Shown one piece after another: positions 38,952 to 64,000 of a stretch of DNA of 64,000 nucleotides. The stretch spans positions 19,861-83,860 of the forward strand of contig JABHNB010000001.1 of the NCBI GenBank assembly GCA_018694115.1, in the 5' to 3' direction. Origin of the DNA: an archaeon. GTDB lineage: Archaea; Nanobdellota; Nanobdellia; Pacearchaeales; GW2011-AR1. A program made the position numbers and the translations under genes. Position 1 is the stretch's first letter. Each line of letters starts with the position of its first letter. The notes under the pieces are model-generated. The model did no database searches. It had not been told where the DNA came from and saw nothing but the letters and a program-made list of their open reading frames with translations.

Positions 38952-39041
38952 ATGGATCTAACTGGAGCGATATTTGCTGTCGTATTTCTTTTAGCGATGT
39001 GGGCAGCATTATGCGGAGGGATATCCTGCGTCGTAGGTTGA
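38952..39041 (+). CDS. 29-aa single-span membrane peptide
   Basis: MDLTGAIFAVVFLLAMWAAL then CGGISCVVG: one hydrophobic helix ending in two Cys. It has a leader hairpin and GAAAGGATG as ribosome site, and its TGA overlaps the ATG of the next gene (ATGA at 39039-39042), so it is translated and coupled. First gene of the bacterial half. Confidence 0.6.
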   Translation: MDLTGAIFAVVFLLAMWAALCGGISCVVG

Positions 39042-39559
39042 TGAACCACAAACTGTGCACTGAGCACAACGGGACGAATAACTGCCCGAAATGGGTGAGA
39101 AAGGTAGGTGACGAGATGAATTTGACGAATTATGAGTATATGCTGGACATGTTGACTGGAAGGGGGATGTTCCGACCTCATGCGGTGGAAATCATCGGAC
39201 TTCTGAAGAAAGAGGTCCAAGGCAGCATAGAGGTTCAGTGGGAAGAAGAGGCCGATTATGCTTCTCAACTCCTCAAAGATCTCAACGAGCTTCTGGGTCC
39301 GATCGCCATCAAGTGGATCGATGAAAACCACACTGAGCATTATTCCTTCATTCGGGATATGTTCTTGCCCGATGAGAAGAAAAAGCCCTACTTGGCTGTG
39401 GAAATCACGGACAAGGATCGGCGAGGTCATGATCGGACGTACCTGATTGAGGGGATTATCGGGAAAATTCGTGCTTGCCTCAGAAAGGCCACAGCCGAGA
39501 ATCCCGTTGGAGAGGATGCAGTAATCTACGTCTCAGTAGATGTCGGAGTCAGGAAATAG
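39041..39559 (+). CDS. Unknown 172-aa protein
   Basis: Start at ATG 39041, overlapping the stop of the membrane peptide. N-terminus has HKLCTEHNGTNNCPKW (possible metal ligands). The middle is helical (YASQLLKDLNELLGPIAIKWIDENH). IYVSVDVGVRK ends the protein. Soluble, acidic, unrecognised. A start farther upstream in this frame would run through the peptide gene and lacks a ribosome site. Confidence 0.7.
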   Translation: MNHKLCTEHNGTNNCPKWVRKVGDEMNLTNYEYMLDMLTGRGMFRPHAVEIIGLLKKEVQGSIEVQWEEEADYASQLLKDLNELLGPIAIKWIDENHTEHYSFIRDMFLPDEKKKPYLAVEITDKDRRGHDRTYLIEGIIGKIRACLRKATAENPVGEDAVIYVSVDVGVRK

Positions 39560-39598
39560 GGGATTTTCTGGCCTCACTGCGATTGTTGAAACTTAATG

Positions 39599-39616
39599 CC
39601 CTTTAAGGGTGAAAGA
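39599..39616 (+). promoter_or_regulatory. Leader hairpin before the internal-repeat protein gene
   Basis: CCCTTTAAGGG followed by TGAAAGAAGG. Compared with 38926-38938, the loop/stem bases differ while CCC/GGG pairing is kept. Confidence 0.5.
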
Positions 39617-39624
39617 AGGTTGAG

Positions 39625-40002
39625 ATGAATCGAGCTGAACTAATTAATGTGATTCGAGGTGCAGAGATTTATGCAACTGAGAATCTGAAATTCTCTAATC
39701 CTGGATTGATCGGTCCCGTTATCGGCGCACTGATAACCAAGGCGTTGGAGTTCGAGATGGAAGCCTCCAACCTCCCAGCTCTGCTGATTGATGAAGCAGG
39801 CGGTTCGGGAACTGACCGGTTGGCCATGATGATCCGGGGCGCAGAGGCTTTTGCAACTGAAGGCCTGAATTACACCGATGTTGAAGTGGTCAGTCAGGTC
39901 GTCAGTGCACTGACAACCAAAGCGTTGGAGAAAGAGACCGCACATTATGTCAAAATTCAGCTGATTGCTGAAGCTGAAATTGCGGAGGAAAAGACGGACT
40001 GA
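39625..40002 (+). CDS. 125-aa protein made of two tandem ~50-aa repeats
   Basis: Repeat 1 (residues ~8-58) contains IRGAEIYATENLKFSNP and GALITKALEFE; repeat 2 (~68-118) contains IRGAEAFATEGLNYTD and SALTTKALEKE. Each ends in (I/L)I(D/A)EA. Both are helical. A soluble acidic protein with no known relatives recalled. The repeat shows an internal gene duplication. It lies just before a tRNA gene. Confidence 0.75.
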   Translation: MNRAELINVIRGAEIYATENLKFSNPGLIGPVIGALITKALEFEMEASNLPALLIDEAGGSGTDRLAMMIRGAEAFATEGLNYTDVEVVSQVVSALTTKALEKETAHYVKIQLIAEAEIAEEKTD

Positions 40003-40028
40003 CGATCATCAGCTCTCCTGGGCTGGTT

Positions 40029-40101
40029 TGGAGCGTAGCTCAACTGGTAGAGCGCTTGGCTTACATCCAAGAGGTCGTAGGTTCGAATCCTGCCGCTCTC
40101 A
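40029..40101 (+). tRNA. tRNA-Val(UAC), bacterial half
   Basis: 73 nt. D arm GCTC/GAGC, anticodon arm CTTGG-CTTACAT-CCAAG with anticodon UAC, variable AGGTC, T arm GTAGG-TTCGAAT-CCTGC. The acceptor stem TGGAGCG/CGCTCTC pairs except at the first position (T-C), with a G-T at the second. No encoded CCA. Sequence is of bacterial type and unlike the archaeal tRNA-Val at 30246. The poor first pair may mean a divergent or decaying gene. Confidence 0.85.
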
Positions 40102-40131
40102 CTCGTTAATTAGTTGATAAACAACAAACCT

Positions 40132-40149
40132 CGCTCCAATCGTGGAGTG
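40132..40149 (+). promoter_or_regulatory. Leader hairpin before the GspF-N-like gene
   Basis: CGCTCC, loop AATCGT, GGAGTG, then AAGAAAGGA. Member of the AAACAACAAACCTC-type leader group used by five neighbouring genes. Confidence 0.6.
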
Positions 40150-40166
40150 AAGAAAGGAAAGGTGTC

Positions 40167-40859
40167 ATGAAGATTTATTATGAGGCGATTGATAGTGGGG
40201 GGAAGATTGTTCGAGGAACTGTTGAAGCATCGGGGGAAGCAGATGCTCTAACTAAACTCTTTCAGAGTGGGTTGGTGCCTGTGGCGATTGGCAATACCCC
40301 CGGGGGAAGAGTTAGAAGCGAATCAAAGGTTGGATTCGGTGCAGGGATTGCTCTTTTCATCAAGATGTTCTTCGAAAAGTGTGCTCCCGAGAGTCATGAC
40401 TTTACCAAGGAACTTCTTGGAAGTCTTCCTGGAACGACTCCGACTGAAAAGTGCGCCTCGGCAGTTAGCCTCTTCAAGCAGATCCCCAGGGGATCCCAGT
40501 TGGAGAGAATGGTCACCGCAGTTCAAAGAGTGTATGAGGTGTTCGGAGATATTACTGGAATTCCGAATCCTCCGAGAAAGATTGACGTGATCGTCTACTG
40601 CCTCCAGGAACTTATGAACTCTCAGGAGGAAAGCTCGGATAAAGGGCATAATCCTGCAAGAGTCATCGGAAGAAGGATCGTTGAGGTCTTCGTTATAACT
40701 CTGATGATCCTAGATGCTGCCCCTGAGCATCACCCTCCTTGGATCGACCGCTCCGTCTCCGATCAGGAATTCCTGTGGAATGTCCAGGAGATAATGAGAG
40801 AAGTCGAGAAGGCTTCTGCGGCAGGAATCTATGATTCTTCGGGGAGAAGGTTTATTTGA
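40167..40859 (+). CDS. GspF-N-like domain protein without membrane part (family B, 1)
   Basis: 230 aa. KIYYEAIDSGGKIVRGTVEASGEADALTKL then GLVPVAIG (residues 2-43) follows the pattern of the N-terminal segment of GspF/PilC-type secretion proteins. The multi-span T2SSF domain is absent. Instead there is a helical domain of ~180 residues (LPGTTPTEKCASAVSLFKQIP, TAVQRVYEVFGD). The same layout recurs at 42075 and 43361. Probably cytosolic; possibly binds a partner of a secretion or pilus machine. Function not known. Confidence 0.7.
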   Translation: MKIYYEAIDSGGKIVRGTVEASGEADALTKLFQSGLVPVAIGNTPGGRVRSESKVGFGAGIALFIKMFFEKCAPESHDFTKELLGSLPGTTPTEKCASAVSLFKQIPRGSQLERMVTAVQRVYEVFGDITGIPNPPRKIDVIVYCLQELMNSQEESSDKGHNPARVIGRRIVEVFVITLMILDAAPEHHPPWIDRSVSDQEFLWNVQEIMREVEKASAAGIYDSSGRRFI

Positions 40860-40899
40860 TTCCGTAAGGGCAATGGTTTGAATGCAAACAACAAAACCT

Positions 40900-40917
40900 C
40901 ACTCTAATTGGGGAGTG
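40900..40917 (+). promoter_or_regulatory. Leader hairpin (CACTCT/GGAGTG)
   Basis: CACTCT, loop AATTGG, GGAGTG, then AATGAAAGGA and the ATG at 40936. Confidence 0.6.
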
Positions 40918-40935
40918 AATGAAAGGAAAATGGTT

Positions 40936-41463
40936 ATGACAAGAAGTGATGAAAAATCTGGTGGAAATGTGTTCTCGTGGGTATGGGACATCTGGAAACT
41001 CGGGCCGAGCTTCGGGCGATTTGTCGTGTTGCTCATCTTCGTGGCGTATACTGTTGGAGAGGTTCAGTCCATTGCCCAGCTTTGGGAATCAGTGGGCCTG
41101 GGAACCACTCTCAACCTCGGCACTAGGGGTAATGTGAGTCACCTGCCGATTATCCCTGCGCTCTTCAAGGGATGTCTCTTCGTGGTTCTGACTACAATGA
41201 GTCTTGCGTGGTGGATAAAGAGGGGCAATCTCCTCCCGTTCAGCCGCCAGGATGGATTGCTTTTCACAATGGCCACCTGGCTCTGGATCGCAGCGATGTG
41301 CGGAGGAGTTATCGGGATTTTTGGAGGGATTTTTGGATGGATTATTTGTGGAGGGTGGGTAAGCCCATTAATCATGTTTATTGCCTTCACTACAGTCGTT
41401 ACAATTGTGGTCTTCCTTATCGGAGTGATCACAGGATTGTGTTGGGAGTTGTCCAGAAGGTAA
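40936..41463 (+). CDS. Four-span membrane protein (family A, 1)
   Basis: 175 aa. Start at the second of two close ATGs (40936), 8 nt after AAAGGA; the first at 40930 is too close. After TRSDEKSGGNVFSW come about four membrane segments (~residues 22-42, 70-90, 105-130 and 140-165), rich in Gly. Paralogue of the next gene, with which it shares SDEKSGGNVFSW and the leader. No functional motif. Confidence 0.75.
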   Translation: MTRSDEKSGGNVFSWVWDIWKLGPSFGRFVVLLIFVAYTVGEVQSIAQLWESVGLGTTLNLGTRGNVSHLPIIPALFKGCLFVVLTTMSLAWWIKRGNLLPFSRQDGLLFTMATWLWIAAMCGGVIGIFGGIFGWIICGGWVSPLIMFIAFTTVVTIVVFLIGVITGLCWELSRR

Positions 41464-41484
41464 TGTCGTTAAACAACAAAACCT

Positions 41485-41502
41485 CACTCTAATTGTGGAG
41501 TG
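41485..41502 (+). promoter_or_regulatory. Leader hairpin (CACTCT/GGAGTG)
   Basis: CACTCT, loop AATTGT, GGAGTG, then AATGAAAGGA, before ATG 41521. Confidence 0.6.
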
Positions 41503-41520
41503 AATGAAAGGAACGAAAAG

Positions 41521-42027
41521 ATGGCAAGTAGTGACGAAAAATCAGGCGGAAATGTTTTCTCGTGGCTGAGTGGAACCGGGCCGAGTTTGTGGAGATTTAT
41601 CGTGTTGCTTTTCGTAATGGCATTCACCATCTACCAGGTGACTTCCCTGTTCTCCCCCGGGAACCCGCAGGGGCTGAGAATGATCCACCACAACGAAGAG
41701 TACACTGTGGCTCAACTCGATATTCTCTTTTCAATCGTCAATGTGTGTGTCTACATTACCCTGACCTCCCTGTGCCTGATCCGATGGGTACAACTCGGGA
41801 AGATCGGTAAGGGTGTTCTCTCGTGGATGAGGATATGGTCACTTGTCGGACTTGGCTTTGGGGGATTTATTGGAGGCATAGCAGGAACAATTGAGGGAAA
41901 TTGTAAGGGGATTATGTCCGAAGGTATGGGTCTCGGAATTATTGTTGGGACAAGTATCTTTCTCTTCTGCTTCATGATTATGGGGGTACTCATCGGGACA
42001 TTCCTGCAACTAGCTTTTGAAGACTAA
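41521..42027 (+). CDS. Four-span membrane protein (family A, 2)
   Basis: 168 aa from ATG 41521 (MASSDEKSGGNVFSW), 9 nt after AAAGGA. Four hydrophobic segments in the same order as the previous gene, but only the first ~15 residues and the first helix are clearly alike; the outer loop between helices 1 and 2 has diverged. A tandem duplicate that includes the leader. Confidence 0.75.
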   Translation: MASSDEKSGGNVFSWLSGTGPSLWRFIVLLFVMAFTIYQVTSLFSPGNPQGLRMIHHNEEYTVAQLDILFSIVNVCVYITLTSLCLIRWVQLGKIGKGVLSWMRIWSLVGLGFGGFIGGIAGTIEGNCKGIMSEGMGLGIIVGTSIFLFCFMIMGVLIGTFLQLAFED

Positions 42028-42038
42028 ACAACAAACCT

Positions 42039-42056
42039 CGCTCCAATTGTGGAGTG
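42039..42056 (+). promoter_or_regulatory. Leader hairpin (CGCTCC/GGAGTG)
   Basis: CGCTCC, loop AATTGT, GGAGTG, then AATGAAAGGA, before ATG 42075. Confidence 0.6.
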
Positions 42057-42074
42057 AATGAAAGGAAAATGGTT

Positions 42075-42773
42075 ATGAAAAAGTACAGATTTAAGGCGAT
42101 GCTTTGGGAGCTCCAGATTCAAGGCCCTTTAGGCCTTTTCCGTTCCGAGATGGACGCCAGAAAAAGGGCCGAAGTTCTTGGATTAAGGGAAGTAGAAGTC
42201 ACGGAAATTCTTCCTGATGAAGAAGGAGTTGAAACCTATGCGAAATGGCTTCAGGAGAGGGTGGAAAAGAATCAAGGAGTTGTGAGCGACCACGAGGGTG
42301 TCAAGCTCAAGAATTTCATGAATGATCTCCCGAGGGATTCCACGAAAGGACGATGGTCATTTGCAGTCTATTTGGGAGACCAGATCTTTCTGGCCAAGGC
42401 TTATGGCCCCCTCCATGCCTACAATATTCCTGGAACTATCACCCTGCTCAAGCGATTGATTGAACTCTCGGATCGGGTTGAAGAAGAAGCCGCCTCCGAA
42501 GAGCCTGTGGGCTCCGGATGGCTTCAGGAGATGATCGATGAACTCCCCGGAGATACGGCGGACGAGAAGGCCAGGTTTATCGTGGGATCACTCATGCTTC
42601 TTCCCGGAGAATCTCCTGAAGAAAAACTCGGAGGGGTGATTCGGTGGGTGAATACGACTTTCGCAGCTTATCCGGCCTCCACCCCGCCCATGCTTCGGAT
42701 CGAGATGGCCTGCCAGCTCGTCATGGGGATCATCATGGCTGAAAAGGATGAGTCCTTGACAGTAGGTGCCTAG
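42075..42773 (+). CDS. GspF-N-like domain protein (family B, 2)
   Basis: 232 aa from ATG 42075, 8 nt after AAAGGA. The first ~42 residues (KKYRFKAMLWELQ...GLREVEVTEI) have the strand-helix-strand pattern of 40167. Two copies of a helical module follow: FMNDLPRDSTKGRWSFAVYL and MIDELPGDTADEKARFIVGSL, each starting with a (D/E)LP(R/G)D box. No membrane segment. The LPGD box also occurs in 40167, so the family is built from a GspF-like cap plus one or more such modules. Confidence 0.7.
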   Translation: MKKYRFKAMLWELQIQGPLGLFRSEMDARKRAEVLGLREVEVTEILPDEEGVETYAKWLQERVEKNQGVVSDHEGVKLKNFMNDLPRDSTKGRWSFAVYLGDQIFLAKAYGPLHAYNIPGTITLLKRLIELSDRVEEEAASEEPVGSGWLQEMIDELPGDTADEKARFIVGSLMLLPGESPEEKLGGVIRWVNTTFAAYPASTPPMLRIEMACQLVMGIIMAEKDESLTVGA

Positions 42774-42831: not shown

Positions 42832-42848
42832 CATCCATAACAAGGATG
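42832..42848 (+). promoter_or_regulatory. Leader hairpin (CATCC/GGATG)
   Basis: CATCC, loop ATAACAA, GGATG, then CTGGAAAGGAAA and an ATG at 42868. A second small inverted repeat (GCG...CGC, 42810-42822) precedes it. This is a normal leader, yet the ATG opens a frame of only 14 codons. Confidence 0.55.
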
Positions 42849-43305: not shown

Positions 43306-43343
43306 GTGCTTAGGCACAAAACCTTACTCCAATTGTGGAGTGA
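43306..43343 (+). promoter_or_regulatory. Double leader hairpin
   Basis: GTGC-TTAG-GCAC (43306-43317), then TTACTCC, loop AATTGT, GGAGTGA (43324-43343), then ATGAAAGGA. The first hairpin recurs at 44672-44683. Confidence 0.6.
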
Positions 43344-43360
43344 ATGAAAGGAAAATGAAG

Positions 43361-44671: not shown

Positions 44672-44706
44672 GTGCTTAGGCACAAAACCCCCTTCCAGAA
44701 ATGGAA
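44672..44706 (+). promoter_or_regulatory. Double leader hairpin with changed second stem
   Basis: GTGC-TTAG-GCAC as before 43361, then TTCCA, loop GAAA, TGGAA in the position where neighbours have ACTCC/GGAGT, then TGGAGAAAGGA. All stem bases differ but pairing is kept. Confidence 0.6.
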
Positions 44707-45683: not shown

Positions 45684-45730
45684 TGGAATGACTTGTACTG
45701 GTATAAACTGGTACGCAAGACAAGGAGACT

Positions 45731-47485: not shown

Positions 47486-48124
47486 ATGAAGCACATGATG
47501 TTGGTGATGGGGGCACTGGCTATTGGAAACGCTCTGGGATTCGTCATCATGCGAAAACGTAATTGTCCGAGGCGACTTATCGACCTTCTGATCTCCTCGA
47601 TGGTTCCTTCTTTAATTCTGCTGACCTTTTCATTATACCATACTCAATGGCCGGTTATATGTTGGTGTAATTATCTCTTGCTGATCTTCTTGATATGGCC
47701 TGTGATAATCTCACTAATGATGAAAAATTGTGTGTTGGTTGATGCAGAGATACTTCGAGATAGGATCCGGGAGGAAGTTTCGGAGATAGATTGTTCTACA
47801 GAGGAATTCGTCAAGAAGGTACAACGGGCCGTTTATTCCTTAGTGAAACATGGGGGAGGAAGATATGTTAAATATTCTTTCCTAACGACCACCCTCCTTG
47901 ACCTTCTCAAGAGGATCTTGAAGCGAAAAAATCCTCTGACTGTAGATCGAACCCGTAGAGCCGTGTTTGCACTTATTGAAGATGCCATCCATGATCCCCG
48001 TGAAATGGAGTGGAATGGTTTTCGGTGGGTGCATAAATCGTGGAGAGTCCAACCTCAAATGCCTCAGGTTAAATCAATTGAAACTATTGCGTTGAAAACG
48101 CAAAACAGAAAGGAAGTAAAATGA
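47486..48124 (+). CDS. Family C membrane protein 1 (no signal domain)
   Basis: 212 aa from ATG 47486. Membrane helices at ~2-22, ~30-48 and ~58-75, with MRKRNCPRRLIDLLISS between them, then a cytosolic domain: NCVLVDAEILRDRIREEV, VQRAVYSLVKHGGG. It lacks the N-terminal secreted domain of the later paralogues. Stop overlaps the next start (ATGA). Confidence 0.7.
   Translation: MKHMMLVMGALAIGNALGFVIMRKRNCPRRLIDLLISSMVPSLILLTFSLYHTQWPVICWCNYLLLIFLIWPVIISLMMKNCVLVDAEILRDRIREEVSEIDCSTEEFVKKVQRAVYSLVKHGGGRYVKYSFLTTTLLDLLKRILKRKNPLTVDRTRRAVFALIEDAIHDPREMEWNGFRWVHKSWRVQPQMPQVKSIETIALKTQNRKEVK
48087..48103 (+). promoter_or_regulatory. Leader hairpin (TTGCGTT/AACGCAA)
   Basis: TTGCGTT, loop GAA, AACGCAA, then AACAGAAAGGA before ATG 48121. 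It lies wholly within the end of the preceding coding region, so the hairpin is kept although it is also translated. Confidence 0.55.
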
Positions 48125-49079: not shown

Positions 49080-49156
49080 GACGAATAACTGAAACTCAAA
49101 GCGTTTGAAAGCGCGAAACAGAAAGGTGAATACAATGAAGCGAACGATTATGATGG
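49080..49156 (+). repeat. 77-bp perfect direct repeat, copy 1
   Basis: Covers the end of the intergenic region, the leader hairpin, the ribosome site and the first seven codons of the gene at 49135. Identical base for base to 49828-49904; a third copy at ~50964-51039 has a few changes. Confidence 0.85.
49101..49114 (+). promoter_or_regulatory. Leader hairpin (GCGTT/AGCGC)
   Basis: GCGTT, loop TGAA, AGCGC, then GAAACAGAAAGG before ATG 49135. Confidence 0.55.
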
Positions 49157-49836: not shown

Positions 49837-49904
49837 CTGAAACTCAAAGCGTTTGAAAGCGCGAAACAGAAAGGTGAATACAATGAAGCGAACGATTATG
49901 ATGG
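49828..49904 (+). repeat. 77-bp perfect direct repeat, copy 2
   Basis: Identical to 49080-49156. Contains the end of the gene at 49135, the leader hairpin (49849-49862), ribosome site and first codons of the gene at 49883. Confidence 0.85.
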
Positions 49905-50959
49905 TTATGGTGGTTGTATTGGCGATCGGCGGGGTTTCTTTTGGAGGGGATGAAGTTGTGGAAACGCGACCGACAGCGTGGCCGGCAACGACTCAGCCCG
50001 CAGGATTGGTCAATGTCAGCGATGGTGCAGATTTCTACATGTTGATCGGAGTCCTCTCTACGAGCGATAAGGTCCGTGGTGTGCGTCCTCCAGAGTTCTT
50101 GGAAGACGTTATTAGGGCCGCACGTAAGTGGAATTTCTCTTCGGATAATCCCCTTGATGGACCCCTGAGTGTCAAGAGGGGAGCTTGCACTGACCTGATC
50201 CGCAGAGTAAAACGCCATGAAAAAGGCGATCTCGTAGGGGATTTCTTGAGGGGATACGATGTAGCCGACAAGAAGTTGAAGCAAGTAGCCAAAGAGGAGA
50301 TTGCAAGGACGAATGAATCGACCAATAAGACATTTAGATTCTTGGGATTGTTGTTTGCCATCCTTTTCCCGGGATTCTTTGTCGGAAACATGATCCTGCA
50401 AAAACGAGATTGTCCGGTTCGTGCTTCTGGAGATCTTCAGCTCTCTGTGGTTCCCCTTGCTTTAGTACCCTTCTTCATGCTCTATCGCCCCGGAGTGATT
50501 GACAGCACGGGATTTTTCTACCTTTCAATAGGGATTTTCTTCTTTTCTCCCATAATCGTTGCGTTGGTCCTCAAGAAGCATCGATGGATTGACGCAAGGG
50601 TGCTTCAGGAGAAGATCAAGGAAAGGATTACTGGAAAGGGTTATTCTCGGACCAAGATCCTGAAGGTGGTACGGAACCTGGTTTATGATCTTGCGAGTCC
50701 CGGGGGAAATGTCGAAGAAGGAAATCATCCTATCGACGCCTCAGATATTCTCCACCACATAAAAAAGGTTAGAGGCAATAGGGGGCCGCTTACTGGGCAG
50801 AGTCTCCGATCGGTGGATATGTTCATCGATATAGCTATCCGGGATAAGATTGGACCGGATTGGGATGGTAACTGGTGGAAAGAGTCGATGGGAGATGGAA
50901 AAAGTGTGGCGATGAAAGCCTTCAGGCAAGATCCAGACGATGGTAAATGGAAGAGATAA
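49883..50959 (+). CDS. Family C membrane protein 4 (full length)
   Basis: 358 aa. Signal peptide (RTIMMVMVVVLAIGGVSFGG), TRPTAWPATTQPAG, outer helical domain (VLSTSDKVRGVRPPEFLEDVI, ~60-155), membrane helices (~165-185, 200-216, 222-242), then KKHRWIDARVLQEKIKERI and VVRNLVYDLASPGG in the cytosolic domain. It shows all modules of family C and is closest to the next gene. Confidence 0.75.
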   Translation: MKRTIMMVMVVVLAIGGVSFGGDEVVETRPTAWPATTQPAGLVNVSDGADFYMLIGVLSTSDKVRGVRPPEFLEDVIRAARKWNFSSDNPLDGPLSVKRGACTDLIRRVKRHEKGDLVGDFLRGYDVADKKLKQVAKEEIARTNESTNKTFRFLGLLFAILFPGFFVGNMILQKRDCPVRASGDLQLSVVPLALVPFFMLYRPGVIDSTGFFYLSIGIFFFSPIIVALVLKKHRWIDARVLQEKIKERITGKGYSRTKILKVVRNLVYDLASPGGNVEEGNHPIDASDILHHIKKVRGNRGPLTGQSLRSVDMFIDIAIRDKIGPDWDGNWWKESMGDGKSVAMKAFRQDPDDGKWKR

Positions 50960-50983: not shown

Positions 50984-50997
50984 GCGTTTGAAAGCGC
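50984..50997 (+). promoter_or_regulatory. Leader hairpin (GCGTT/AGCGC), copy 3
   Basis: GCGTT, loop TGAA, AGCGC, then AAAACAGAAAGG before ATG 51018. Confidence 0.55.
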
Positions 50998-51017
50998 AAA
51001 ACAGAAAGGTGAATACA

Positions 51018-52073
51018 ATGAAGCGAACGATTATGGTGGTGATGGTGGTTGTATTGGCAATCGGTGGGATTTCCTTCGGGGCTGCGGAAAAGGCAGAGAC
51101 TCCCCTGACAGATCCGCATTTCAGGTTGATCAATGTCAGCAAAAGCCCTGATCTCTTCAAGTTGATCGAGATCGTCTCTTCGAGCGAGATGATTCGGAAT
51201 ACGCGATCTCCCGAGTTCCTTGAGGACGTTATCAAATCCGCCCGTAAGGATGAGTTCGTCTCGGACGATCCGGTGGATAGCGCCCTTGCAGATAAGAAGA
51301 ATGCTTGCCACAAGTTGGTATGGCGAGTGAGACAGAATGAAGAGGGCGATGTTATCGGAAAGTTCCTGAAGGAATACGATGCGGCCGACAAGAAATTGAA
51401 GCAGGCGGTTGAAGCGAAGATAGCGAAGAAGAAGGCAATAGCAAATGCGGATTTACTGCTGATTCTATCTGGCATGATTACGTTATTCCTAGGAGTCTTT
51501 GTTGGAATGAAGATCGTGAAGAAGCGCCATTCCCCAAAGTCTCCGGTCTTCGTTTTTTGTTTCTCTGTTCTCGGGTTCATTCTCCTGTTTATCGGACTCC
51601 CCTTCCTTCTTCGCTATTGGGAGTTCACAGGATTAATGCCCCTCACACTCACTCCGATCTTCTTCCTCCTCCCAGTTGTAGTGGGGATACTGCTCAAGAA
51701 GCATGTGATGATCGATGCGGGAAAACTTTGGGAGGGTATCGAGAATTTCATAGACGATTTGGTGGATACGCCAAGCCCAAAAGAAATCCTCGGATATGCG
51801 CGTAACCTTGTCATTACTCTGGCAAGTTCCTCTAGCCCGAAGAACCTGAAGAATCCGATCGATGGCAGCAGTGTTCTGATGCTTGTCGAATCCCTGGAAT
51901 TTCTGCTGAAAGAAGGCGGGACAGTAGATGAGGGAGGAATGTGTAATATGCACAAGTTGTATAATCTCATCAAAAGTGCCATCGAAGATGAACCGGTTGA
52001 CGAAAGTGCGGATGGCCAGCTTGGTTGCGCGGTTGATCCCGAACCGGAAGGCCAAGGCGCAGATGGTTTCTAG
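51018..52073 (+). CDS. Family C membrane protein 5 (full length)
   Basis: 351 aa. Signal peptide RTIMVVMVVVLAIGGISFGA, outer helical domain (IVSSSEMIRNTRSPEFLEDVI matches paralogue 4 at the same place), three or four membrane helices, KKHVMIDAGKLWEGIENFI, YARNLVITLASSSS and an acidic tail. Last member of the tandem set; followed by a strong hairpin. Confidence 0.75.
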   Translation: MKRTIMVVMVVVLAIGGISFGAAEKAETPLTDPHFRLINVSKSPDLFKLIEIVSSSEMIRNTRSPEFLEDVIKSARKDEFVSDDPVDSALADKKNACHKLVWRVRQNEEGDVIGKFLKEYDAADKKLKQAVEAKIAKKKAIANADLLLILSGMITLFLGVFVGMKIVKKRHSPKSPVFVFCFSVLGFILLFIGLPFLLRYWEFTGLMPLTLTPIFFLLPVVVGILLKKHVMIDAGKLWEGIENFIDDLVDTPSPKEILGYARNLVITLASSSSPKNLKNPIDGSSVLMLVESLEFLLKEGGTVDEGGMCNMHKLYNLIKSAIEDEPVDESADGQLGCAVDPEPEGQGADGF

Positions 52074-52728: not shown

Positions 52729-52757
52729 CGCCAAGAAGGTTCTGAAAGGAGCTGATT

Positions 52758-53045
52758 ATGCTTATTCGTACAAAAATCCAAGTCGGGGTAATAGTGTTAC
52801 TGATGATGATTGCGATCTTAGTTAGCTGCATTGTCCTTAACGCCATCAACCACTCCTTGGATTCACCAACGGTTGGAAGTGGAGAGACGGAAGGATCGGC
52901 TACCACACAACAGGTAAGTGGGGAGCTGAGTGCTACAGACAAAAGGATAGGTGTAATTTTTATCCTTGTCATGGCATTGCTTTTTGGTCTCTATGGTATC
53001 TCACTCATAGTCGATTCAGAAGGAACATCAATAACCTGGGCATAA
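52758..53045 (+). CDS. 95-aa two-span membrane protein (family G, 1)
   Basis: Two membrane helices (~7-27: IQVGVIVLLMMIAILVSCIVL; ~66-84) separated by a polar loop (SLDSPTVGSGETEGSATTQQ). About three quarters of residues are identical to the protein at 55696. The hairpin GGGCA-TAAT-TGCCT at its stop codon (53039-53052) is the leader of the next gene. Confidence 0.75.
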   Translation: MLIRTKIQVGVIVLLMMIAILVSCIVLNAINHSLDSPTVGSGETEGSATTQQVSGELSATDKRIGVIFILVMALLFGLYGISLIVDSEGTSITWA

Positions 53046-53070
53046 TTGCCTGGGTGAAAGGAAACAGATC

Positions 53071-53817: not shown

Positions 53818-54182
53818 AAAGGACAGGACATGTCGATAACAGCCTATTAGTCACAATTGTTCTGCTTCTTCTGGGGAGTGTGGCGGCGGTCGCAATCGTT
53901 AAACATCTCCAGAGAGATGAGAAAGGGCAGAATGAGAACAGTGGCAAGACGGAGGCAGCGGCTGTGCAGCCTGCTGAAAACGAAACGACAACGCCCAAGA
54001 AAGAAGTGCAGGAAGGTGAAGATCCTGAAGCAGGAAGACCCCTGGAAATAGATCGTGTGCGGGATCTGGGGAAAAAGAACATTGTAGTTCTTATGGTGGT
54101 GATTGGCTGTCTTGCAGTCATTGCCTTCTTGGTCTTTTGCAAGATCCTCAAGTCCCTCAAACCAAACAAACACTCGGATTAA
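53814..54182 (+). CDS. Two-span membrane protein
   Basis: 122 aa. Helices at ~11-30 (LLVTIVLLLLGSVAAVAIV) and ~84-104 (NIVVLMVVIGCLAVIAFLVF), with a Glu-rich loop (SGKTEAAAVQPAENETT). Start overlaps the stop of the beta-rich protein (ATGA). Same two-helix plan as the family G proteins but no sequence similarity. Confidence 0.65.
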   Translation: MKRTGHVDNSLLVTIVLLLLGSVAAVAIVKHLQRDEKGQNENSGKTEAAAVQPAENETTTPKKEVQEGEDPEAGRPLEIDRVRDLGKKNIVVLMVVIGCLAVIAFLVFCKILKSLKPNKHSD

Positions 54183-54191
54183 GTTCGAGTG
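54171..54191 (+). promoter_or_regulatory. Leader hairpin (CACTCG/CGAGTG)
   Basis: CACTCG, loop GATTAAGTT, CGAGTG, perfect 6 bp, then TGAAAGGAG before ATG 54207. The loop contains the stop codon of the preceding gene. Confidence 0.6.
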
Positions 54192-54206
54192 TGAAAGGAG
54201 ATGATC

Positions 54207-54494: not shown

Positions 54495-54519
54495 GGAAAG
54501 AGATGTTAAACTCACAACT

Positions 54520-54536
54520 CCGCGCAATTAGCGTGG
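54520..54536 (+). promoter_or_regulatory. Leader hairpin (CCGCGC/GCGTGG)
   Basis: CCGCGC, loop AATTA, GCGTGG, then GAAAGGAAAGA before ATG 54551. Confidence 0.6.
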
Positions 54537-54550
54537 GAAAGGAAAGAAAG

Positions 54551-55383: not shown

Positions 55384-55683
55384 ATGATGAAAGAAACGAA
55401 AAAAGGTATACGTAAATACCGGACCGACGGAATTGTGATCATGATTATCGGCCTCATGGGAGTCCTTGCGGGGATGGCCATCGCCACATACGAGGTAATA
55501 TTGTTCCAAGGAATATTGTTCCAAGGAGCCTCCCCCGGTCCCGGAATTCCGCCCCCCTGGTTCATTGTCCTCTCTGGAGCTGCGATTATGCTTTTTGCGG
55601 GGAGATGTATTATTTCAGGTAACAAGCTTCGCACAGCGACGTATGACTCTGAAGAAGATCCAACTGAAACCAAAGGTTCATGA
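55384..55683 (+). CDS. Two-span membrane protein with a 15-bp tandem duplication
   Basis: 99 aa. Helices ~17-38 (IVIMIIGLMGVLAGMAIATY) and ~55-75. Between them ILFQG is repeated because AATATTGTTCCAAGG occurs twice in tandem (55497-55511 and 55512-55526), a recent in-frame slippage or duplication. Not recognised. The start of the next gene's leader overlaps its stop. Confidence 0.65.
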   Translation: MMKETKKGIRKYRTDGIVIMIIGLMGVLAGMAIATYEVILFQGILFQGASPGPGIPPPWFIVLSGAAIMLFAGRCIISGNKLRTATYDSEEDPTETKGS

Positions 55684-55695
55684 AAGGAACCTATT

Positions 55696-55983
55696 ATGCT
55701 TACTCGTACAAAAGTCCAGGTCGGAGTAATATTGGTACTGATGATGATTGCGATTTTAGTTAGCTGTATTGTCCTGAACGCCATCAACCACTCCCAGGAT
55801 TCACCAACTGTTGGAAGTGGAGAGGCAGAAAGATCAGTCACCACCCAATCCCCTAAGGAAGGGATGAGTGCGACGGACAAGAGGATAGGGGTAATTTTCA
55901 TCCTTTTGATGATGATAGCTTGGGGCCTCTATGGCATCTCCCTCGTAGTCGATTCAGAAGGAACATCAATAACTCGGGCATGA
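55696..55983 (+). CDS. 95-aa two-span membrane protein (family G, 2)
   Basis: Near-copy of 52758-53045: both helices and the end DSEGTSIT(W/R)A are almost unchanged, while the loop (SQDSPTVGSGEAERSVTTQ) differs. Short hairpin TGAAACC-AAA-GGTTCA precedes AAAGGA. The leader of the following gene (GGGCA-TGAT-TGCTT, 55976-55989) overlaps its stop, as in paralogue 1. Confidence 0.75.
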   Translation: MLTRTKVQVGVILVLMMIAILVSCIVLNAINHSQDSPTVGSGEAERSVTTQSPKEGMSATDKRIGVIFILLMMIAWGLYGISLVVDSEGTSITRA

Positions 55984-56008
55984 TTGCTTGGGAGAAAGGA
56001 ACCATCGC

Positions 56009-56709: not shown

Positions 56710-56725
56710 GTGCCTGATTAGGCGC
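56710..56725 (+). promoter_or_regulatory. Leader hairpin (GTGCCT/AGGCGC)
   Basis: GTGCCT, loop GATT, AGGCGC, then GCAGAGAAAGGA before ATG 56746. Confidence 0.6.
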
Positions 56726-57476: not shown

Positions 57477-57495
57477 GTGCCTGAAGTTTAGGCGC
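57477..57495 (+). promoter_or_regulatory. Leader hairpin (GTGCCT/AGGCGC)
   Basis: GTGCCT, loop GAAGTTT, AGGCGC, then GCAGAGAAAGGA before ATG 57509. Confidence 0.6.
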
Positions 57496-59772: not shown

Positions 59773-60747
59773 ATGAAGACAATCGCAACTATCGTATTGG
59801 CAGCCGTGATTTTCTGCGGTTTCGGGATGATTAACAACGTAGCGGACGGCGGTGTGATTATGGTGACCGAGACCTTTACGCCGACTGTCGAGATCGTCAC
59901 GCCGACGATCGAAGAACCGACATCTACTGGTGGCGGAAGCGGTGGTTCCGGCGGCGGCATTACACTGCCCGAACTCCCGGATCGGCAGACAAACATTGGG
60001 TACAACAGCGACGGCCTTGACATCAACGTCAATACCGAGGTTGAGGAAGCGTGGGAACATCTCACCAAGTGGACGGATATGGCCGGCAATGAGTATTCGG
60101 ATATGCATATCCACCCTCAACAGGTGCGCGGAGATGCAAACCTCTACCTCAACCAGGACCGTTTCACCTATCTCGGCGAAAAGATGTATGTCTATCCGTA
60201 TAGCACGGAACTCCGCATCTACCGGAATGACGACAAATACTGGAATGACGAAGAAGAAGGTATTCGATTCCAGATCTCCGGCGAGATGCAGTTCCTGTTC
60301 ACTAGCGACGCCGATGAAATCGCCAACTGGCCGACGCCCCCCGGATCGAATTATTACTACAACATGGGCGGCATCAACCTCAGCGCCAGCATCGAGATGC
60401 ACCACCAGTATGATTATGTGCAAATCGACCAGGACAGCGATGAGTGGACAAGGATCCTCACAGACGACATCCGTGCCAGCATGGACTTCCGGCTCGAAGA
60501 TGGCAAGATCGATTACGCGGGCCTTGGCATCGGCGATCTCTATTGGTGGGGCGATGACGTCCTCGGCATGAGGGTGGACATCGATTTCTCCGCCTTTTAC
60601 ACCGGTTCAGATGTCGAAGCGTTCAAGGCCGCGGTGCCCATGGAATCTCAGCACGCGCCCGAGCCCGCCACGATGATCCTGCTGGCTTCCGGCGGTCTGG
60701 TCATGCTGAAGCGCCGACTCCGATCCCGACGTTTGCAAAAGTCGTAA
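59773..60747 (+). CDS. PEP-CTERM exosortase-sorted secreted protein
   Basis: 324 aa. Signal peptide (KTIATIVLAAVIFCGFGMI), a Gly/Ser linker (GGGSGGSGGGITLPE), a beta-rich mature part with many Asp/Tyr, and a C-terminal sorting signal: PEPATMILLASGGLVML followed by a basic tail KRRLRSRR. Exosortases in planctomycetes and other bacteria cut such tails at the cell surface. The first clear marker of a bacterial origin for this half. The exosortase gene is not in the window. Confidence 0.9.
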   Translation: MKTIATIVLAAVIFCGFGMINNVADGGVIMVTETFTPTVEIVTPTIEEPTSTGGGSGGSGGGITLPELPDRQTNIGYNSDGLDINVNTEVEEAWEHLTKWTDMAGNEYSDMHIHPQQVRGDANLYLNQDRFTYLGEKMYVYPYSTELRIYRNDDKYWNDEEEGIRFQISGEMQFLFTSDADEIANWPTPPGSNYYYNMGGINLSASIEMHHQYDYVQIDQDSDEWTRILTDDIRASMDFRLEDGKIDYAGLGIGDLYWWGDDVLGMRVDIDFSAFYTGSDVEAFKAAVPMESQHAPEPATMILLASGGLVMLKRRLRSRRLQKS

Positions 60748-60870: not shown

Positions 60871-60901
60871 GTTAACAAGACGTTGAAGAAAGGTAAAAAT
60901 C

Positions 60902-61387
60902 ATGATCCATTCATTGTTCCTTATCCCCATAATTTCCCTGTTTTGGGCCTACTTTGCTAACCGGCAGAAAAAAGATTACACTCCCGGACTGGTTGCAGTG
61001 GGAGTCATCGGCCTGATCGCCCTTCTGATTCCGACTATCGCGGCTACATTCAGGGTCTATAACGCCCAGGTGAATATGCGGACGATTCAGCGAAACATCG
61101 TGGCGAAACAGGCCGAATACAAGAAAGTGGAGAACTGCGCCGATGCCAGCATAGCGAAGTATCCACTGGAGAAGGGATTGTTTGGGAGTCTCTCGCGGAC
61201 ATTGCTCCTCAAGATGCCTGAGATAAGGGGAGACTCTCTCCTTGTAGCAAAGCTGAAACAGATGGCAGAACTCGAAGACGAGATCTACAAGCTTAATGTG
61301 GAGCTGAATGAGAACAAAGGCTGTCTCGACTGGCACTCCGCCTGGTTCAGCATGTCGCTGATCTCGCCGTATCCCGAAAAGGACTAG
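60902..61387 (+). CDS. Two-span membrane protein with helical domain (pair D, 1)
   Basis: 161 aa. Helices ~2-20 and ~33-52, then VNMRTIQRNIVAKQAEYKKVE, KYPLEKGLFGSLSRTLLLKMPEI and a coiled-coil-like end with WHSAWFSMSLISPYP. The next gene has the same length and order. Possibly an inner-membrane subunit with a helical domain. Not recognised. Confidence 0.7.
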   Translation: MIHSLFLIPIISLFWAYFANRQKKDYTPGLVAVGVIGLIALLIPTIAATFRVYNAQVNMRTIQRNIVAKQAEYKKVENCADASIAKYPLEKGLFGSLSRTLLLKMPEIRGDSLLVAKLKQMAELEDEIYKLNVELNENKGCLDWHSAWFSMSLISPYPEKD

Positions 61388-61423
61388 TTCCTGCGAGGTT
61401 GTTGCAGTAAATGATGAAATATT

Positions 61424-61442
61424 CTCGGCTAGTGTAGCTGAG
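61424..61442 (+). promoter_or_regulatory. Leader hairpin (CTCGGCTA/TAGCTGAG)
   Basis: CTCGGCTA, loop GTG, TAGCTGAG, 8 bp, ~35 nt before ATG 61476. Embedded in a repeated stretch (GCAGTAAATGATGAAATATT) also found at 61981. Confidence 0.7.
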
Positions 61443-61475
61443 ACTTTAAAAAAACAAGACAGAAAGGAAAAAACC

Positions 61476-61961
61476 ATGATTTGGTTATTGATTCCAGCAT
61501 TCCTGTTCGTTATGGCGATCATTGCGGGCATAAGCACAAGAGACGCAAACTATTTCTGGGGATGGACAACTGCGGCAATTATTGTTTCGGTAATCCTCCT
61601 GATCCCCACCGGGGTTTGTACCTACCATGTTCTGGATCACCGTGTTAATATCCAAAGGATTCAGGACGATATCGTGGCGAAGCGGGCCGAGTACGAAGAT
61701 GTCAAGGCAGATATCGAAGCCTGCATCAAGAGCTATCCGCTGGAGAAGGGGTGGTTTGAGAATCTTTCGCGAACGTTCCTGCTTCGACTGCCCGAAGTGA
61801 AAAGCGATGTTCTCCTGGCGAAGAAAATCAGTCACCTTGCAAAACTTCGTAACGACGTCTTCCAGTTGACTCAGAACCTGAACGCTACAAAAGCTAAACT
61901 CAGGTGGCATGAATCCCGCTGGTTCAGCATGACGTTGGCCGATCCGTGCCTGAAGAAGTGA
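61476..61961 (+). CDS. Two-span membrane protein with helical domain (pair D, 2)
   Basis: 161 aa, tandem paralogue of 60902: VNIQRIQDDIVAKRAEYEDVK, SYPLEKGWFENLSRTFLLRLPEV and WHESRWFSMTLADPC match its blocks one for one. Ribosome site GACAGAAAGGA. Confidence 0.7.
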   Translation: MIWLLIPAFLFVMAIIAGISTRDANYFWGWTTAAIIVSVILLIPTGVCTYHVLDHRVNIQRIQDDIVAKRAEYEDVKADIEACIKSYPLEKGWFENLSRTFLLRLPEVKSDVLLAKKISHLAKLRNDVFQLTQNLNATKAKLRWHESRWFSMTLADPCLKK

Positions 61962-62001
61962 TTGCGGTTGGCAGGTTTTTTGCAGTAAATGATGAAATAT
62001 T

Positions 62002-62020
62002 CTCGGCTAGTGTAGCTGGG
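62002..62020 (+). promoter_or_regulatory. Leader hairpin (CTCGGCTA/TAGCTGGG)
   Basis: CTCGGCTA, loop GTG, TAGCTGGG: one T-A pair becomes T-G. Before ATG 62057. Confidence 0.65.
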
Positions 62021-62056
62021 ATTTTGCGAACAAGACGTTGAATAAAGGTAAAGATT

Positions 62057-62908
62057 ATGAGTTTTATAACTGTTGACGAAAACTCCCGAATCGGGAAACT
62101 TCTCGCGGAGTTGATGGGCAAATTCGAAAACGTTCCCACCGAGGATCTTCCGGAAAGCATCCAGGTAGCGGTGGGGGAAGCGCGTAAGCAGATTGGCGAG
62201 CTTGAAAGTGAGAAGGCGGAGACACTCTCCCCCCTGACAGACAATCTCGAGGCAGTCCAAAGGAATATCCAAACCGCTCTCGAGCTCTCCGAAATTCAGG
62301 ATGCGGTTCGGACCTATGAGAACCTCGATTTTCTTATCCAGAATGGCGGCTCACCCGATTCCTTGTCGGAGGACGTTCACGGCAGGGTAAGTTCCATTGT
62401 GGCTCTCGTCGGAGATCACATGGATCAGGTTTCCCTGCGCCGGAATCAGATCTCCGAAGCTGGAGAGCAGTACGATACAGCGATCCGGGCACTCAAAACG
62501 CAGGTGAATATGTTCATCGCCGGCGCGATAGCCAAGTCCTATGTCCAGGACATCGGACCGTATCTTGGAAAGGTCAATGGCCTCAAGGACATCGTCATCG
62601 ACATTCTCGCAGACAATCGCGAGTCCATCGGCGGTCTGCTTGGCGTGTTCCACGAACTGGCCCTCGAAGTGAAGGAAGGTACGCAGGACGCGCGAATGGA
62701 GCTCGTCAAGCTGAGAGTTACGGAACAGCGCAGGAAACTGGATTCGATGTTGAAAGCCGGGCTCCCCGAAAGGGTCGCTATTGCTGTCCTCCTGAAAGAG
62801 TCCAAAGGACTTTCGACCTCTGAAGCCCGGGGTCGTTCCCTCGCCATCCAGATTCTTTCAGCAAATCTGAGTAAGCTGATTGACTCAATCACGTCATCAC
62901 TCTCCTAG
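62057..62908 (+). CDS. Helical protein (pair F, 1)
   Basis: 283 aa, no membrane span. Long helices throughout (AVGEARKQIGELESEKAETLSPL, SLRRNQISEAGEQYDTAIRALKT). The segment LADNRESIGGLLGVFHELAL then EVKEGTQDARM (~185-215) is almost unchanged in the next gene. Not recognised; might form a coiled-coil scaffold. Confidence 0.7.
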   Translation: MSFITVDENSRIGKLLAELMGKFENVPTEDLPESIQVAVGEARKQIGELESEKAETLSPLTDNLEAVQRNIQTALELSEIQDAVRTYENLDFLIQNGGSPDSLSEDVHGRVSSIVALVGDHMDQVSLRRNQISEAGEQYDTAIRALKTQVNMFIAGAIAKSYVQDIGPYLGKVNGLKDIVIDILADNRESIGGLLGVFHELALEVKEGTQDARMELVKLRVTEQRRKLDSMLKAGLPERVAIAVLLKESKGLSTSEARGRSLAIQILSANLSKLIDSITSSLS

Positions 62909-62959
62909 TGGTGCCGCCGAACCAAGATTGTATCTTATTGCTGTATCGTAAAACCTATT

Positions 62960-62978
62960 CTCAACTAGTGTGGTTGAG
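62960..62978 (+). promoter_or_regulatory. Leader hairpin (CTCAACTA/TGGTTGAG)
   Basis: CTCAACTA, loop GTG, TGGTTGAG: compared with 61424-61442, both strands of the stem changed together. Before ATG 63015. Confidence 0.65.
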
Positions 62979-63014
62979 ATTTAGCAAACAAGACTTTGAT
63001 CAGAGGAAATGATT

Positions 63015-63821
63015 ATGACAAGCATTATGAATATTATTGGAAGTGGAAGAGCTCAGGCAGGAGCAATGCTTCAGGGCCTGATGAGTCAACTCAGCAGCGG
63101 ATCCGGAATGGAAGATCTTCCGCCCGAAGCCCTGCAGAAAATCGCGGAAATGTCGCAGCAGGCAGAGACGCTCTCCGAACAGAAGGCCGAAGCGTTGAAG
63201 GCCCTGGAAGACGGAAAGGCCGCGGACCTTCGGAAAGAAGTTAATGACGCCATCGAAGCGGAATTCCCCGGAAAGATGGAAGAAATCAAGGCCACCGCGT
63301 TTCAGGGACTGCTCAGCGAAATACCTCCCGAAACTGCGGCCATGATGGATCGCATCGAAAAGATCCAGGAAGGTTTCAAGGATCGCATCGAGGCTATCGA
63401 GACCGAGCACGCCGCTCTCGAGAAGAAGTACGACGATCAGATCGAAGCACTCCAGGACTCAATCGGAATGATCGTTGCCGGCGAGATGGGGAAAGTCCTG
63501 TTCAAGGCAACCGCCGGACCGTACCTCGAAAAGGCCATCGGCGTTAAGAGCATCGCCCTAGGCTTCCTCGCGGACAATCGCGAGTCCATCGGCGGACTGC
63601 TCGGCGTGTTCCACGAACTGGCCCTCGAAGTGAAGGAAGGTACGCAGGACGCGCGGATGAAGCTCGTTGATCTGAAATCCAGGGAGCAGAGAATCGAACT
63701 GACCGCCCTGGAAGAAGCATTCGGCTCGGAGCTCGCAGAGGTGATTTTCCTGAGCAAAATGAATGCGATTCAGGTCACCGACCCCGCCAGCCTTCCCGGC
63801 GCTATGGCTCCCCGGAGCTAA
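63015..63821 (+). CDS. Helical protein (pair F, 2)
   Basis: 268 aa from ATG 63015; ATG 63009 is too close to AGAGGAAA. A helical, Ala/Glu-rich protein with ALKALEDGKAADLRKEVNDAI in the middle. The region LADNRESIGG...GTQDARM (positions ~187-217) is shared with the previous gene almost base for base, whereas the rest is only weakly similar. Not recognised. Confidence 0.7.
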   Translation: MTSIMNIIGSGRAQAGAMLQGLMSQLSSGSGMEDLPPEALQKIAEMSQQAETLSEQKAEALKALEDGKAADLRKEVNDAIEAEFPGKMEEIKATAFQGLLSEIPPETAAMMDRIEKIQEGFKDRIEAIETEHAALEKKYDDQIEALQDSIGMIVAGEMGKVLFKATAGPYLEKAIGVKSIALGFLADNRESIGGLLGVFHELALEVKEGTQDARMKLVDLKSREQRIELTALEEAFGSELAEVIFLSKMNAIQVTDPASLPGAMAPRS

Positions 63822-63962
63822 ACAACCGCGAGGTAGTCTTAGAAGAATGACGTAAACTAGTTCCGGGCTCTGCTTGTGGTTGTTTTGAGCATCCCGGGGC
63901 TGGTTGTTTGTTGGGTATGGTTCTATTCATTGGTTGTTAACTCTAGTTGAAAGGAGCACTTT

Positions 63963-64000
63963 ATGTGCCCATCGCAAGACGAGTCGAACATACAGGATGA
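63963..64000 (+). CDS. Start of a gene cut by the window edge
   Basis: ATG 63963, 6 nt after AAAGGAG; MCPSQDESNIQD is all that is seen. A structured stretch (CCGGG...CCCGG, 63871-63897) lies upstream as before other genes of the array. Confidence 0.4.
   Translation, partial: MCPSQDESNIQD

What the first reader, a model, noticed from the sequence alone, without database searches (positions are those of the whole stretch)
38952..64000. A short RNA hairpin sits directly before the ribosome binding site of nearly every gene in the 25-kb array
At about 25 gene starts, a 4-8 bp stem with a 3-9 nt loop lies a few to ~35 nt before an AAAGGA site. Stems differ between groups: CGCTCC/GGAGTG, TTCCA/TGGAA, GCGTT/AGCGC, TTGCGTT/AACGCAA, CACTCG/CGAGTG, CCGCGC/GCGTGG, GTGCCT/AGGCGC, CATCC/GGATG, CTCGGCTA/TAGCTGAG. 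Position is kept while bases change, and in several cases the hairpin overlaps the stop codon or coding end of the preceding gene. This argues for selected RNA structure rather than chance repeats. It may be a 5'-end stabiliser, a processing site, or a binding site for a common translational regulator. I know of no described system of this form.
Basis: partly seen in the sequence, partly recalled or inferred. Interest (0 to 1): 0.85.

Follow-up and report, generated by a model that had tools for sequence, protein, structure and literature searches.

The report
RNA-punctuated orphan-gene array in archaea
An archaeon with a very small genome carries some fifty mostly unknown genes in one row, at a chromosomal spot that its relatives fill with quite different genes, and many of these genes start shortly after a predicted RNA hairpin that likely helps to cut or protect what would be one long shared transcript.

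Summary
The hairpins are there and are not chance. Of 51 leaders, 34 have a stem of 5 bp or more within 38 nt before the Shine-Dalgarno (SD) site (shuffled 16.4, sd 3.0), 10 one of 8 bp or more (1.3). The signal peaks at the SD and is stronger on the coding strand. "Nearly every gene" is too strong: 20 of 53 leaders are significant singly. The host is most likely a Pacearchaeota-type DPANN archaeon, not Phycisphaerae. The array continues on a second contig (about 39 kb in all) between a HerA-like ATPase and pyruvate phosphate dikinase; relatives hold other genes there. The array shows no excess of promoter-like boxes. A covarying leader RNA absent from Rfam follows HerA in 12 related loci; tRNA-like elements lie between genes in some arrays. 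I favour intercistronic processing and 5'-end stabilisation; no experiment shows it. Against a general rule: other arrays exceed background only slightly (41 of 376 against 17 of 213 host leaders). Integron membership fails.

The parts
36201..38147 (+). HerA/FtsK-superfamily ATPase gene (648 aa) that borders the array on its left in this genus
   Evidence: Pfam DUF87 4.2e-9; NCBIfam CedD 55 bits, far under its cut-off of 600; found in 12 of 16 genus genomes, own included, and at 61 loci
38556..38678 (+). structured leader RNA, weak match here to a leader family conserved in part of the relatives
   Evidence: model R1: 14.1 bits, E 0.0075 in an 801-base search with filters off; not reported in the wide scan; family covariation
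38952..64000 (+). window part of the co-oriented orphan-gene array (goes on over a 90-bp overlap into contig C8)
   Evidence: GC about 0.49 against about 0.36; 90-bp overlap, a 44-nt probe from it found only at these two contig ends
40029..40102 (+). tRNA-Val(TAC)-like element between two array genes
   Evidence: ARAGORN, Rfam tRNA 63.8 bits; 26 nt after a stop, 64 nt before the next start
40131..40150 (+). hairpin before gene 40167, TCGCTCCA/TGGAGTGA, 8 bp
   Evidence: z -4.04
40899..40918 (+). hairpin before gene 40930, 7 bp
41484..41503 (+). hairpin before gene 41521, 8 bp
42038..42057 (+). hairpin before gene 42069, 8 bp
42832..42848 (+). hairpin before ORF 42867, CATCC/GGATG, 5 bp
   Evidence: not significant alone
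43324..43343 (+). hairpin before gene 43355, 8 bp
44693..44706 (+). hairpin before gene 44720, TTCCA/TGGAA, 5 bp
   Evidence: aligned with the 43355 leader it shows two double changes, by an alignment that is open to other readings
45694..45715 (+). hairpin before gene 45731, 9 bp
48087..48103 (+). hairpin before gene 48121, TTGCGTT/AACGCAA, inside the coding end of the gene before it
   Evidence: not significant alone
49101..49114 (+). hairpin before gene 49135, GCGTT/AGCGC (copies at 49849-49862 and 50984-50997)
   Evidence: not significant alone
53034..53055 (+). hairpin before gene 53071, 9 bp
54170..54192 (+). hairpin before gene 54207, 10 bp, spans the stop codon of the gene before it
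54519..54537 (+). hairpin before gene 54551, CCGCGC/GCGTGG
55973..55992 (+). hairpin before gene 56009, 8 bp; copy of the 53071 hairpin before a gene with no BLASTP match to gene 53071
56710..56725 (+). hairpin before gene 56746, GTGCCT/AGGCGC
   Evidence: not significant alone
57477..57495 (+). hairpin before gene 57515, 8 bp
61425..61441 (+). hairpin about 35 nt before gene 61476, CTCGGCTA/TAGCTGAG group (copies before 62057 and 63015)
   Evidence: one double change G-C to A-U among the three copies

Best explanation
The hairpins are predicted RNA stem-loops, far more frequent than chance, between the genes of one co-oriented gene array of about 39 kb in a DPANN archaeon, and they likely act in the mRNA as processing and 5'-end stability elements that turn one long predicted transcript into separately maintained messages. 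Shown: position at the SD, excess over shuffles, coding-strand bias, no excess of promoter-like boxes inside the array, a tRNA-like element in the array and more in relatives. Inferred: that the array is one transcript read from the left; that RNase P and tRNase Z cut at the tRNA-like elements; that an endonuclease cuts at or above the hairpins and that the hairpin then shields the new 5' end just before the SD. Leader copies probably spread with tandem duplication and recombination of array genes.
For: Excess and position. Coding-strand bias, which a DNA-level palindrome would not give. TATA-like 8/8 boxes: 1 of 52 array leaders (shuffled 1.5) against 17 of 36 host leaders (6.1) in this genome; in 33 related loci 26 of 296 co-oriented array genes (35.4 expected) against 95 of 283 host genes (39.6). 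Leaders are better conserved than the genes behind them and stand before genes without BLASTP kinship. tRNA-like elements between cistrons: own 40029-40102 and L044 (1), L046 (3), L050 (1), L074 (3): nine, all on the coding strand, five of them 36-46 nt before the next start, none with an encoded CCA as read; two in L046 have a six-nt anticodon loop and so hardly decode. Precedent: intergenic stem-loops of the cip-cel operon set cleavage and stability (PMC10311766, passages).
Against: No transcript data. Other arrays show little: 41 of 376 leaders with p<0.05, mean z -0.21, against 17 of 213 host leaders, -0.14 (that set was not trimmed at PPDK or array ends, which dilutes it). The C8 half of the own array has few (2 of 14 leaders significant against 18 of 39 in the window). 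Stems vary in length, loop and distance (up to 24 nt), which suits no single known nuclease. tRNA density is not clearly higher downstream of HerA than upstream (23 hits, 0.059 per kb, against 21, 0.041 per kb); four further hits in Pacearchaeota-type loci (L054 two on the coding strand, L057 and L063 one each on the other), all more than 9.3 kb out, I set aside as probably beyond the array; with them 11 of 13 are on the coding strand. With a looser TATA score (7 of 8) host leaders are not enriched either (28 of 36, shuffled 29.2). The compensatory evidence inside hairpin families is thin.
Confidence: 0.42

Rival explanations
1. Translation-initiation elements: the hairpin lies just before the SD and would keep upstream RNA away from it, act as a ribosome standby site, or break coupling with the gene before.
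For: The last stem ends 0-5 nt before the SD in 32 of 51 leaders and the peak is at the SD.
Against: Predicted SD accessibility is not higher than with shuffled leaders: 0.577 against 0.576, higher in 29 of 51, p 0.41.
Confidence: 0.22
2. Binding site for one translational regulator that reads shape, not sequence.
For: Shared position with different stem sequences; the array shows no excess of promoter-like boxes, so control after transcription is plausible.
Against: By eye, loops and stems share no common motif between groups except the SD; relatives with arrays mostly lack the hairpins.
Confidence: 0.12
3. No function: leaders copied by tandem duplication, kept by recency.
For: Leaders of a group are copies; hairpins are concentrated in this one array.
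Against: Composition-controlled excess remains with one value per family (34 units, p about 1e-4); coding-strand bias; stem changes mostly keep pairs.
Confidence: 0.16
4. Recombination sites (integron attC-like): the array is a cassette array and the hairpins are folded DNA sites.
For: Co-oriented orphan genes with full turnover between species; one duplicated unit runs from just before the SD of one gene to the SD of the next (52736-53066 and 55673-56004); integrons are known in archaea, Nanoarchaeota included (PMC9668308, passages).
Against: No attC-like R-box pairs on either strand (0; 1.1 expected); folding is stronger on the coding strand; the two tyrosine-recombinase hits of the genome look like XerA (279 aa) and a topoisomerase IB-like protein, judged by eye.
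Confidence: 0.05
5. Assembly chimera of archaeal and bacterial DNA.
For: GC jumps from about 0.36 to about 0.49 at the left border and one array gene is a bacterial-type vault protein.
Against: The array joins archaeal DNA on both sides through a 90-bp overlap of two contig ends; HerA and PPDK are co-oriented neighbours in all 8 other genus genomes that hold both on one contig, 1.5 to 36 kb apart; other species hold arrays there too.
Confidence: 0.03

Closest known systems
cip-cel operon intergenic stem-loops, Ruminiclostridium cellulolyticum (selective RNA processing and stabilisation; PMC10311766, abstract and passages seen)
   Same: stem-loops in intergenic regions of a co-oriented operon
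   Different: bacterium; there in six intergenic regions and with cleavage shown; here before dozens of genes close to the SD, in an archaeon, with no cleavage data
Start-associated (SAS) and extended start-associated sequences (ESAS) of cluster K mycobacteriophages (PMC3203893, passages seen)
   Same: repeated element at the start of a subset of genes, about half of them with an inverted repeat just upstream
   Different: SAS is one conserved 13-bp sequence and ESAS a 17-bp inverted repeat with a consensus per genome; here stems differ between groups and only the SD is shared
Archaeal integron cassette arrays (PMC9668308, passages seen)
   Same: co-oriented arrays of short genes in archaea
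   Different: no attC-like sites, no IntI found, structure favours the RNA strand
tRNA punctuation of polycistronic transcripts, as in mitochondria (recalled, no call)
   Same: tRNA-like elements between cistrons in the same orientation
   Different: few elements per array here; processing not shown
Leader RNAs of long operons for processive antitermination such as EAR and put (recalled; one search listed four papers, none on an archaeal one)
   Same: structured RNA ahead of what would be one very long operon
   Different: archaeal, no kinship tested, function unknown

Membership tests
Integron / attC cassette array | attC sites with R'' and R' boxes | tested here: not met
   0 box pairs on each strand of the 39.5-kb array, shuffled mean 1.1; a pattern scan, not HattCI or the attC covariance model
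Integron / attC cassette array | IntI integrase in the genome | tested here: not met
   2 PF00589 hits in the own genome (82.7% complete): XerA-like and topoisomerase IB-like, judged by eye; IntI-specific model not run
Integron / attC cassette array | co-oriented short orphan cassettes | tested here: met
   database search for two array proteins only, one an orphan, the other the vault protein with many bacterial relatives
SAS/ESAS of cluster K phages | one conserved start-associated sequence | tested here: not met
   stems differ between groups, only the SD is shared
SAS/ESAS of cluster K phages | inverted repeat just upstream of the start element | tested here: met
   34 of 51 with a stem of 5 bp or more
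Intercistronic processing/stabilisation stem-loops (cip-cel type) | stem-loops between cistrons of one transcript | tested here: inconclusive
   stem-loops met; one transcript only inferred from missing TATA-like boxes
Intercistronic processing/stabilisation stem-loops (cip-cel type) | cleavage at the stem-loops and different stability of the pieces | not testable with these tools
   no transcript data
Known RNA family (Rfam 15) for hairpins or leader RNA | match at or above the gathering score | tested here: not met
   only the tRNA family above its cut-off in window 38400-64000; no match at the leader of L056, L073, L064, L060, the four loci tried

The most novel reading that the evidence does not exclude
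DPANN archaea share a chromosomal expression locus for rapidly replaced orphan genes: a HerA/Ced-like ATPase gene, then a new covarying leader RNA that lets RNA polymerase read tens of kilobases (an archaeal antitermination-type leader), then a promoterless array whose cistrons are separated by RNA punctuation, hairpins in some species and tRNA mimics in others. New genes need only an SD and a punctuation element to be expressed there, so the locus works like an integron without an integrase.
Probability: 0.2. Interest if true: 0.9.

Novelty: new variant of a known kind. Interest (0 to 1): 0.72.

Why it matters
DPANN archaea have small genomes, yet this lineage keeps up to about 40 kb at one locus for species-specific, often membrane-type proteins (TM-like segment in 32 of 50 array against 4 of 36 host proteins). 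If the reading is right, it shows how one archaeal promoter region can serve a fast-changing gene store, and it offers a new structured RNA and ready-made punctuation elements that can be tested in culturable archaea.

Tried and rejected
Integron reading: attC-like scan and integrase search negative. SD-insulator reading: accessibility no better than shuffled. DNA palindrome / operator reading: coding-strand bias and different stems. Chimera reading: disfavoured by synteny and the two-sided junction. Phage reading: three scans of viral contigs with the HerA-like protein, one array protein and one leader pattern found nothing (the tool may leave out records of this genome). Function of array genes: Pfam gave mostly nothing. 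A general hairpin rule in other arrays: not found. The pair statistics (5 compensatory, 30 consistent, 0 broken over 53 leader pairs in 11 arrays) are biased, since RNAalifold picks consistent pairs; I use them only as illustration. The own array proteins have no match in 64 related loci at E 1e-3 (repeated with HerA as positive control: 62 of 64 loci; the best of 14 weak matches up to E 1 was 0.017). 50 proteins were compared; the 429-aa gene on C8 was left out through a wrong start in my list. One search also matched the 157-aa ORF at 34689-35162 in 61 of 64 loci, but positions were not examined, so I claim nothing from it. A first leader alignment of ten loci was replaced by one of the six that share one layout for the model.
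Full report
What the window is. Bases 1 to about 38,500 are archaeal chromosome (ribosomal protein L35Ae, HerA-like ATPase; GC mostly 0.3 to 0.4). The window is the end of contig C3 of a 0.9-Mb genome, 82.7% complete. The HerA-like protein is found in 12 of 16 genus genomes, own included, and at 61 loci of named records, titled archaeon, Nanoarchaeota, Pacearchaeota, Woesearchaeota or Nanoarchaeia, with one Diapherotrites and one Desulfobulbaceae label. So the host is a DPANN archaeon, most likely of the Pacearchaeota group, not a Phycisphaerae bacterium.

The array is a real chromosomal stretch. The last 90 bases of C3 equal the first 90 of the reverse complement of C8; a 44-nt probe from the overlap occurs only at these two ends. 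Joined there, about 50 co-oriented genes run for some 39 kb and end before a pyruvate phosphate dikinase (PPDK) gene. In the 8 other genus genomes where HerA and PPDK sit on one contig, the two are co-oriented with PPDK downstream, 1.5 to 36 kb apart (G003, G005, G007, G008, G009, G018, G022, G023); in three more genomes with HerA they lie on different contigs. The space is filled with different, mostly co-oriented genes. None of 50 own array proteins matches any of 64 related loci at E 1e-3, while HerA, run as a control, matches 62 of 64. One array protein (window 49883-50959) found only itself and one further protein, at 41% identity and of the length of its own neighbour 50988-52073, among 5.8 billion proteins. 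An exception is a 918-aa bacterial-type major vault protein on the C8 half.

Hairpin test. 53 gene starts were used; 51 of them have a recognisable SD. Stems of 7 bp or more: 16 of 51, shuffled mean 3.3, largest of 100 shuffles 7. Energy z -1.35 over 53 leaders, 20 with p<0.05, 18 of 39 in the window and 2 of 14 on C8; one value per family leaves 34 units with mean z -1.17. The effect sits at the SD and not in neighbouring windows. The sense strand folds better than the antisense strand (-1.48 kcal/mol; shuffled -0.17, sd 0.26). My reading is that this comes from G.U pairs, which are A.C on the other strand, and that it argues for RNA. Predicted SD accessibility is not improved.

Copies and changes. 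A self-comparison shows that leaders are repeated before genes without kinship and are better kept than the genes: five copies of the CTCGCTCC group, three of the CTCGGCTA group, five of the GCGTT group. One duplicated unit of about 331 bp runs from just before the SD of one gene to five bases before the next start (52736-53066 and 55673-56004, 83%). Inside stems, 39 of 40, 27 of 27 and 16 of 16 cells pair, with one double change; but with so few copies the shuffle control is blind. In another species (L048) two similar leaders show a compensatory change at the same place.

How general. In other loci hairpins are barely above background (41 of 376, 10.9%; host leaders 17 of 213, 8.0%), with local excess in L042, L047 and L094 (3 of 10, 3 of 6, 6 of 14). 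That set was not trimmed at PPDK or at array ends. So the array is general in this lineage, the hairpin leaders are not.

One transcript, inferred. TATA-like 8/8 boxes are enriched before host genes (17 of 36; shuffled 6.1) but not before array genes (1 of 52; 1.5) here (the windows differ by ten bases, and at 7 of 8 neither set is enriched), and likewise in 33 related loci (95 of 283 host against 39.6 expected; 26 of 296 co-oriented array genes against 35.4; plain shuffles). Co-oriented array proteins are rich in TM-like segments (167 of 296 against 59 of 293 host).

The leader RNA. The 700 bases after HerA carry the motif GRAAWACC 2.93 times per kb, against 0.25 elsewhere. A model from six loci, run over the window and 56 loci, finds six further loci at E<0.001, all just after HerA; of the 18 hits listed at E up to 0.5, 14 lie there and 4 elsewhere. 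So most loci are not matched by this one model. On the 12-sequence alignment 22 of 31 pairs have a change on both sides (shuffled 11.0, sd 2.1; 0 of 500) and 89.1% of cells pair (74.9%), far above slid versions. The alignment was fitted to the model, which leans towards it, and the model's E-values are rough. The window's own copy is a weak match at 38556-38678 (14.1 bits). Rfam has nothing there.

tRNA-like punctuation. The own array holds a tRNA-Val(TAC)-like element between two genes. Eight more lie between array genes of L044, L046, L050 and L074, all on the coding strand; five of the nine end 36-46 nt before the next start, none encodes CCA; the two in L046 have a six-nt anticodon loop. 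Over all loci one search lists 23 hits downstream of HerA: these eight, four in Pacearchaeota-type loci that lie more than 9.3 kb out (L054 two on the coding strand, L057 and L063 one each on the other), which I set aside as probably beyond the array, and 11 in other lineages. tRNAs are not clearly denser there than upstream of HerA.

Reading. Intercistronic RNA structures that set processing and 5'-end stability of one long transcript fit best; the cip-cel operon is the nearest worked example. Initiation control is the main rival. Literature: in the rows listed by seven searches I saw no paper on a HerA-linked orphan-gene array, on its leader RNA or on hairpins before the SD in DPANN; most of these lists were cut at 10 to 15 rows and the library holds only open-licence papers, so absence there is weak evidence.

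Noticed in passing
L006 307-3063 (-), contig C8: 918-aa major vault protein homologue (MVP_shoulder 9.1e-25), 38-44% identical to the listed relatives other than itself, those with an organism name being bacteria, inside the archaeal array; a second one lies elsewhere in same-genus genome G022 (C2:35696-36028). 2 of 16 genus genomes.
   Followed up: partly
L046 16571-16641 and 17303-17373: Two near-identical tRNA-like elements with a six-nt anticodon loop between array genes; likely not decoding tRNAs.
   Followed up: partly
L044 18340-18414 and L085 4566-4638: tRNA-like elements with anticodon TCA (would read UGA) downstream of HerA in two different lineages.
   Followed up: no
L005 16524-17627 (-): Array gene with solute-binding halves around an ion-channel domain, like ionotropic glutamate receptors.
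   Followed up: no
window 59773-60747: Array protein ending in a PEP-CTERM-like motif (TIGR02595 18.8 bits, cut-off 16), a bacterial sorting signal.
   Followed up: no
window 36201-38147: The HerA-like protein has a partial CedD match (55 bits, cut-off 600); CedD is named a DNA-translocating ATPase.
   Followed up: no
L042: Contig filed under a Desulfobulbaceae MAG that carries the DPANN HerA locus and array; probably misbinned.
   Followed up: no
L060 45-245: Match to RT-16 RNA (Rfam RF03019, 71.3 bits) about 2.5 kb upstream of the HerA gene.
   Followed up: no
window 63857-63912 and C8 copy: 56-bp intergenic repeat (93% identical) before two neighbouring genes, and a second repeat pair on C8; no clear hairpin at the SD.
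   Followed up: no
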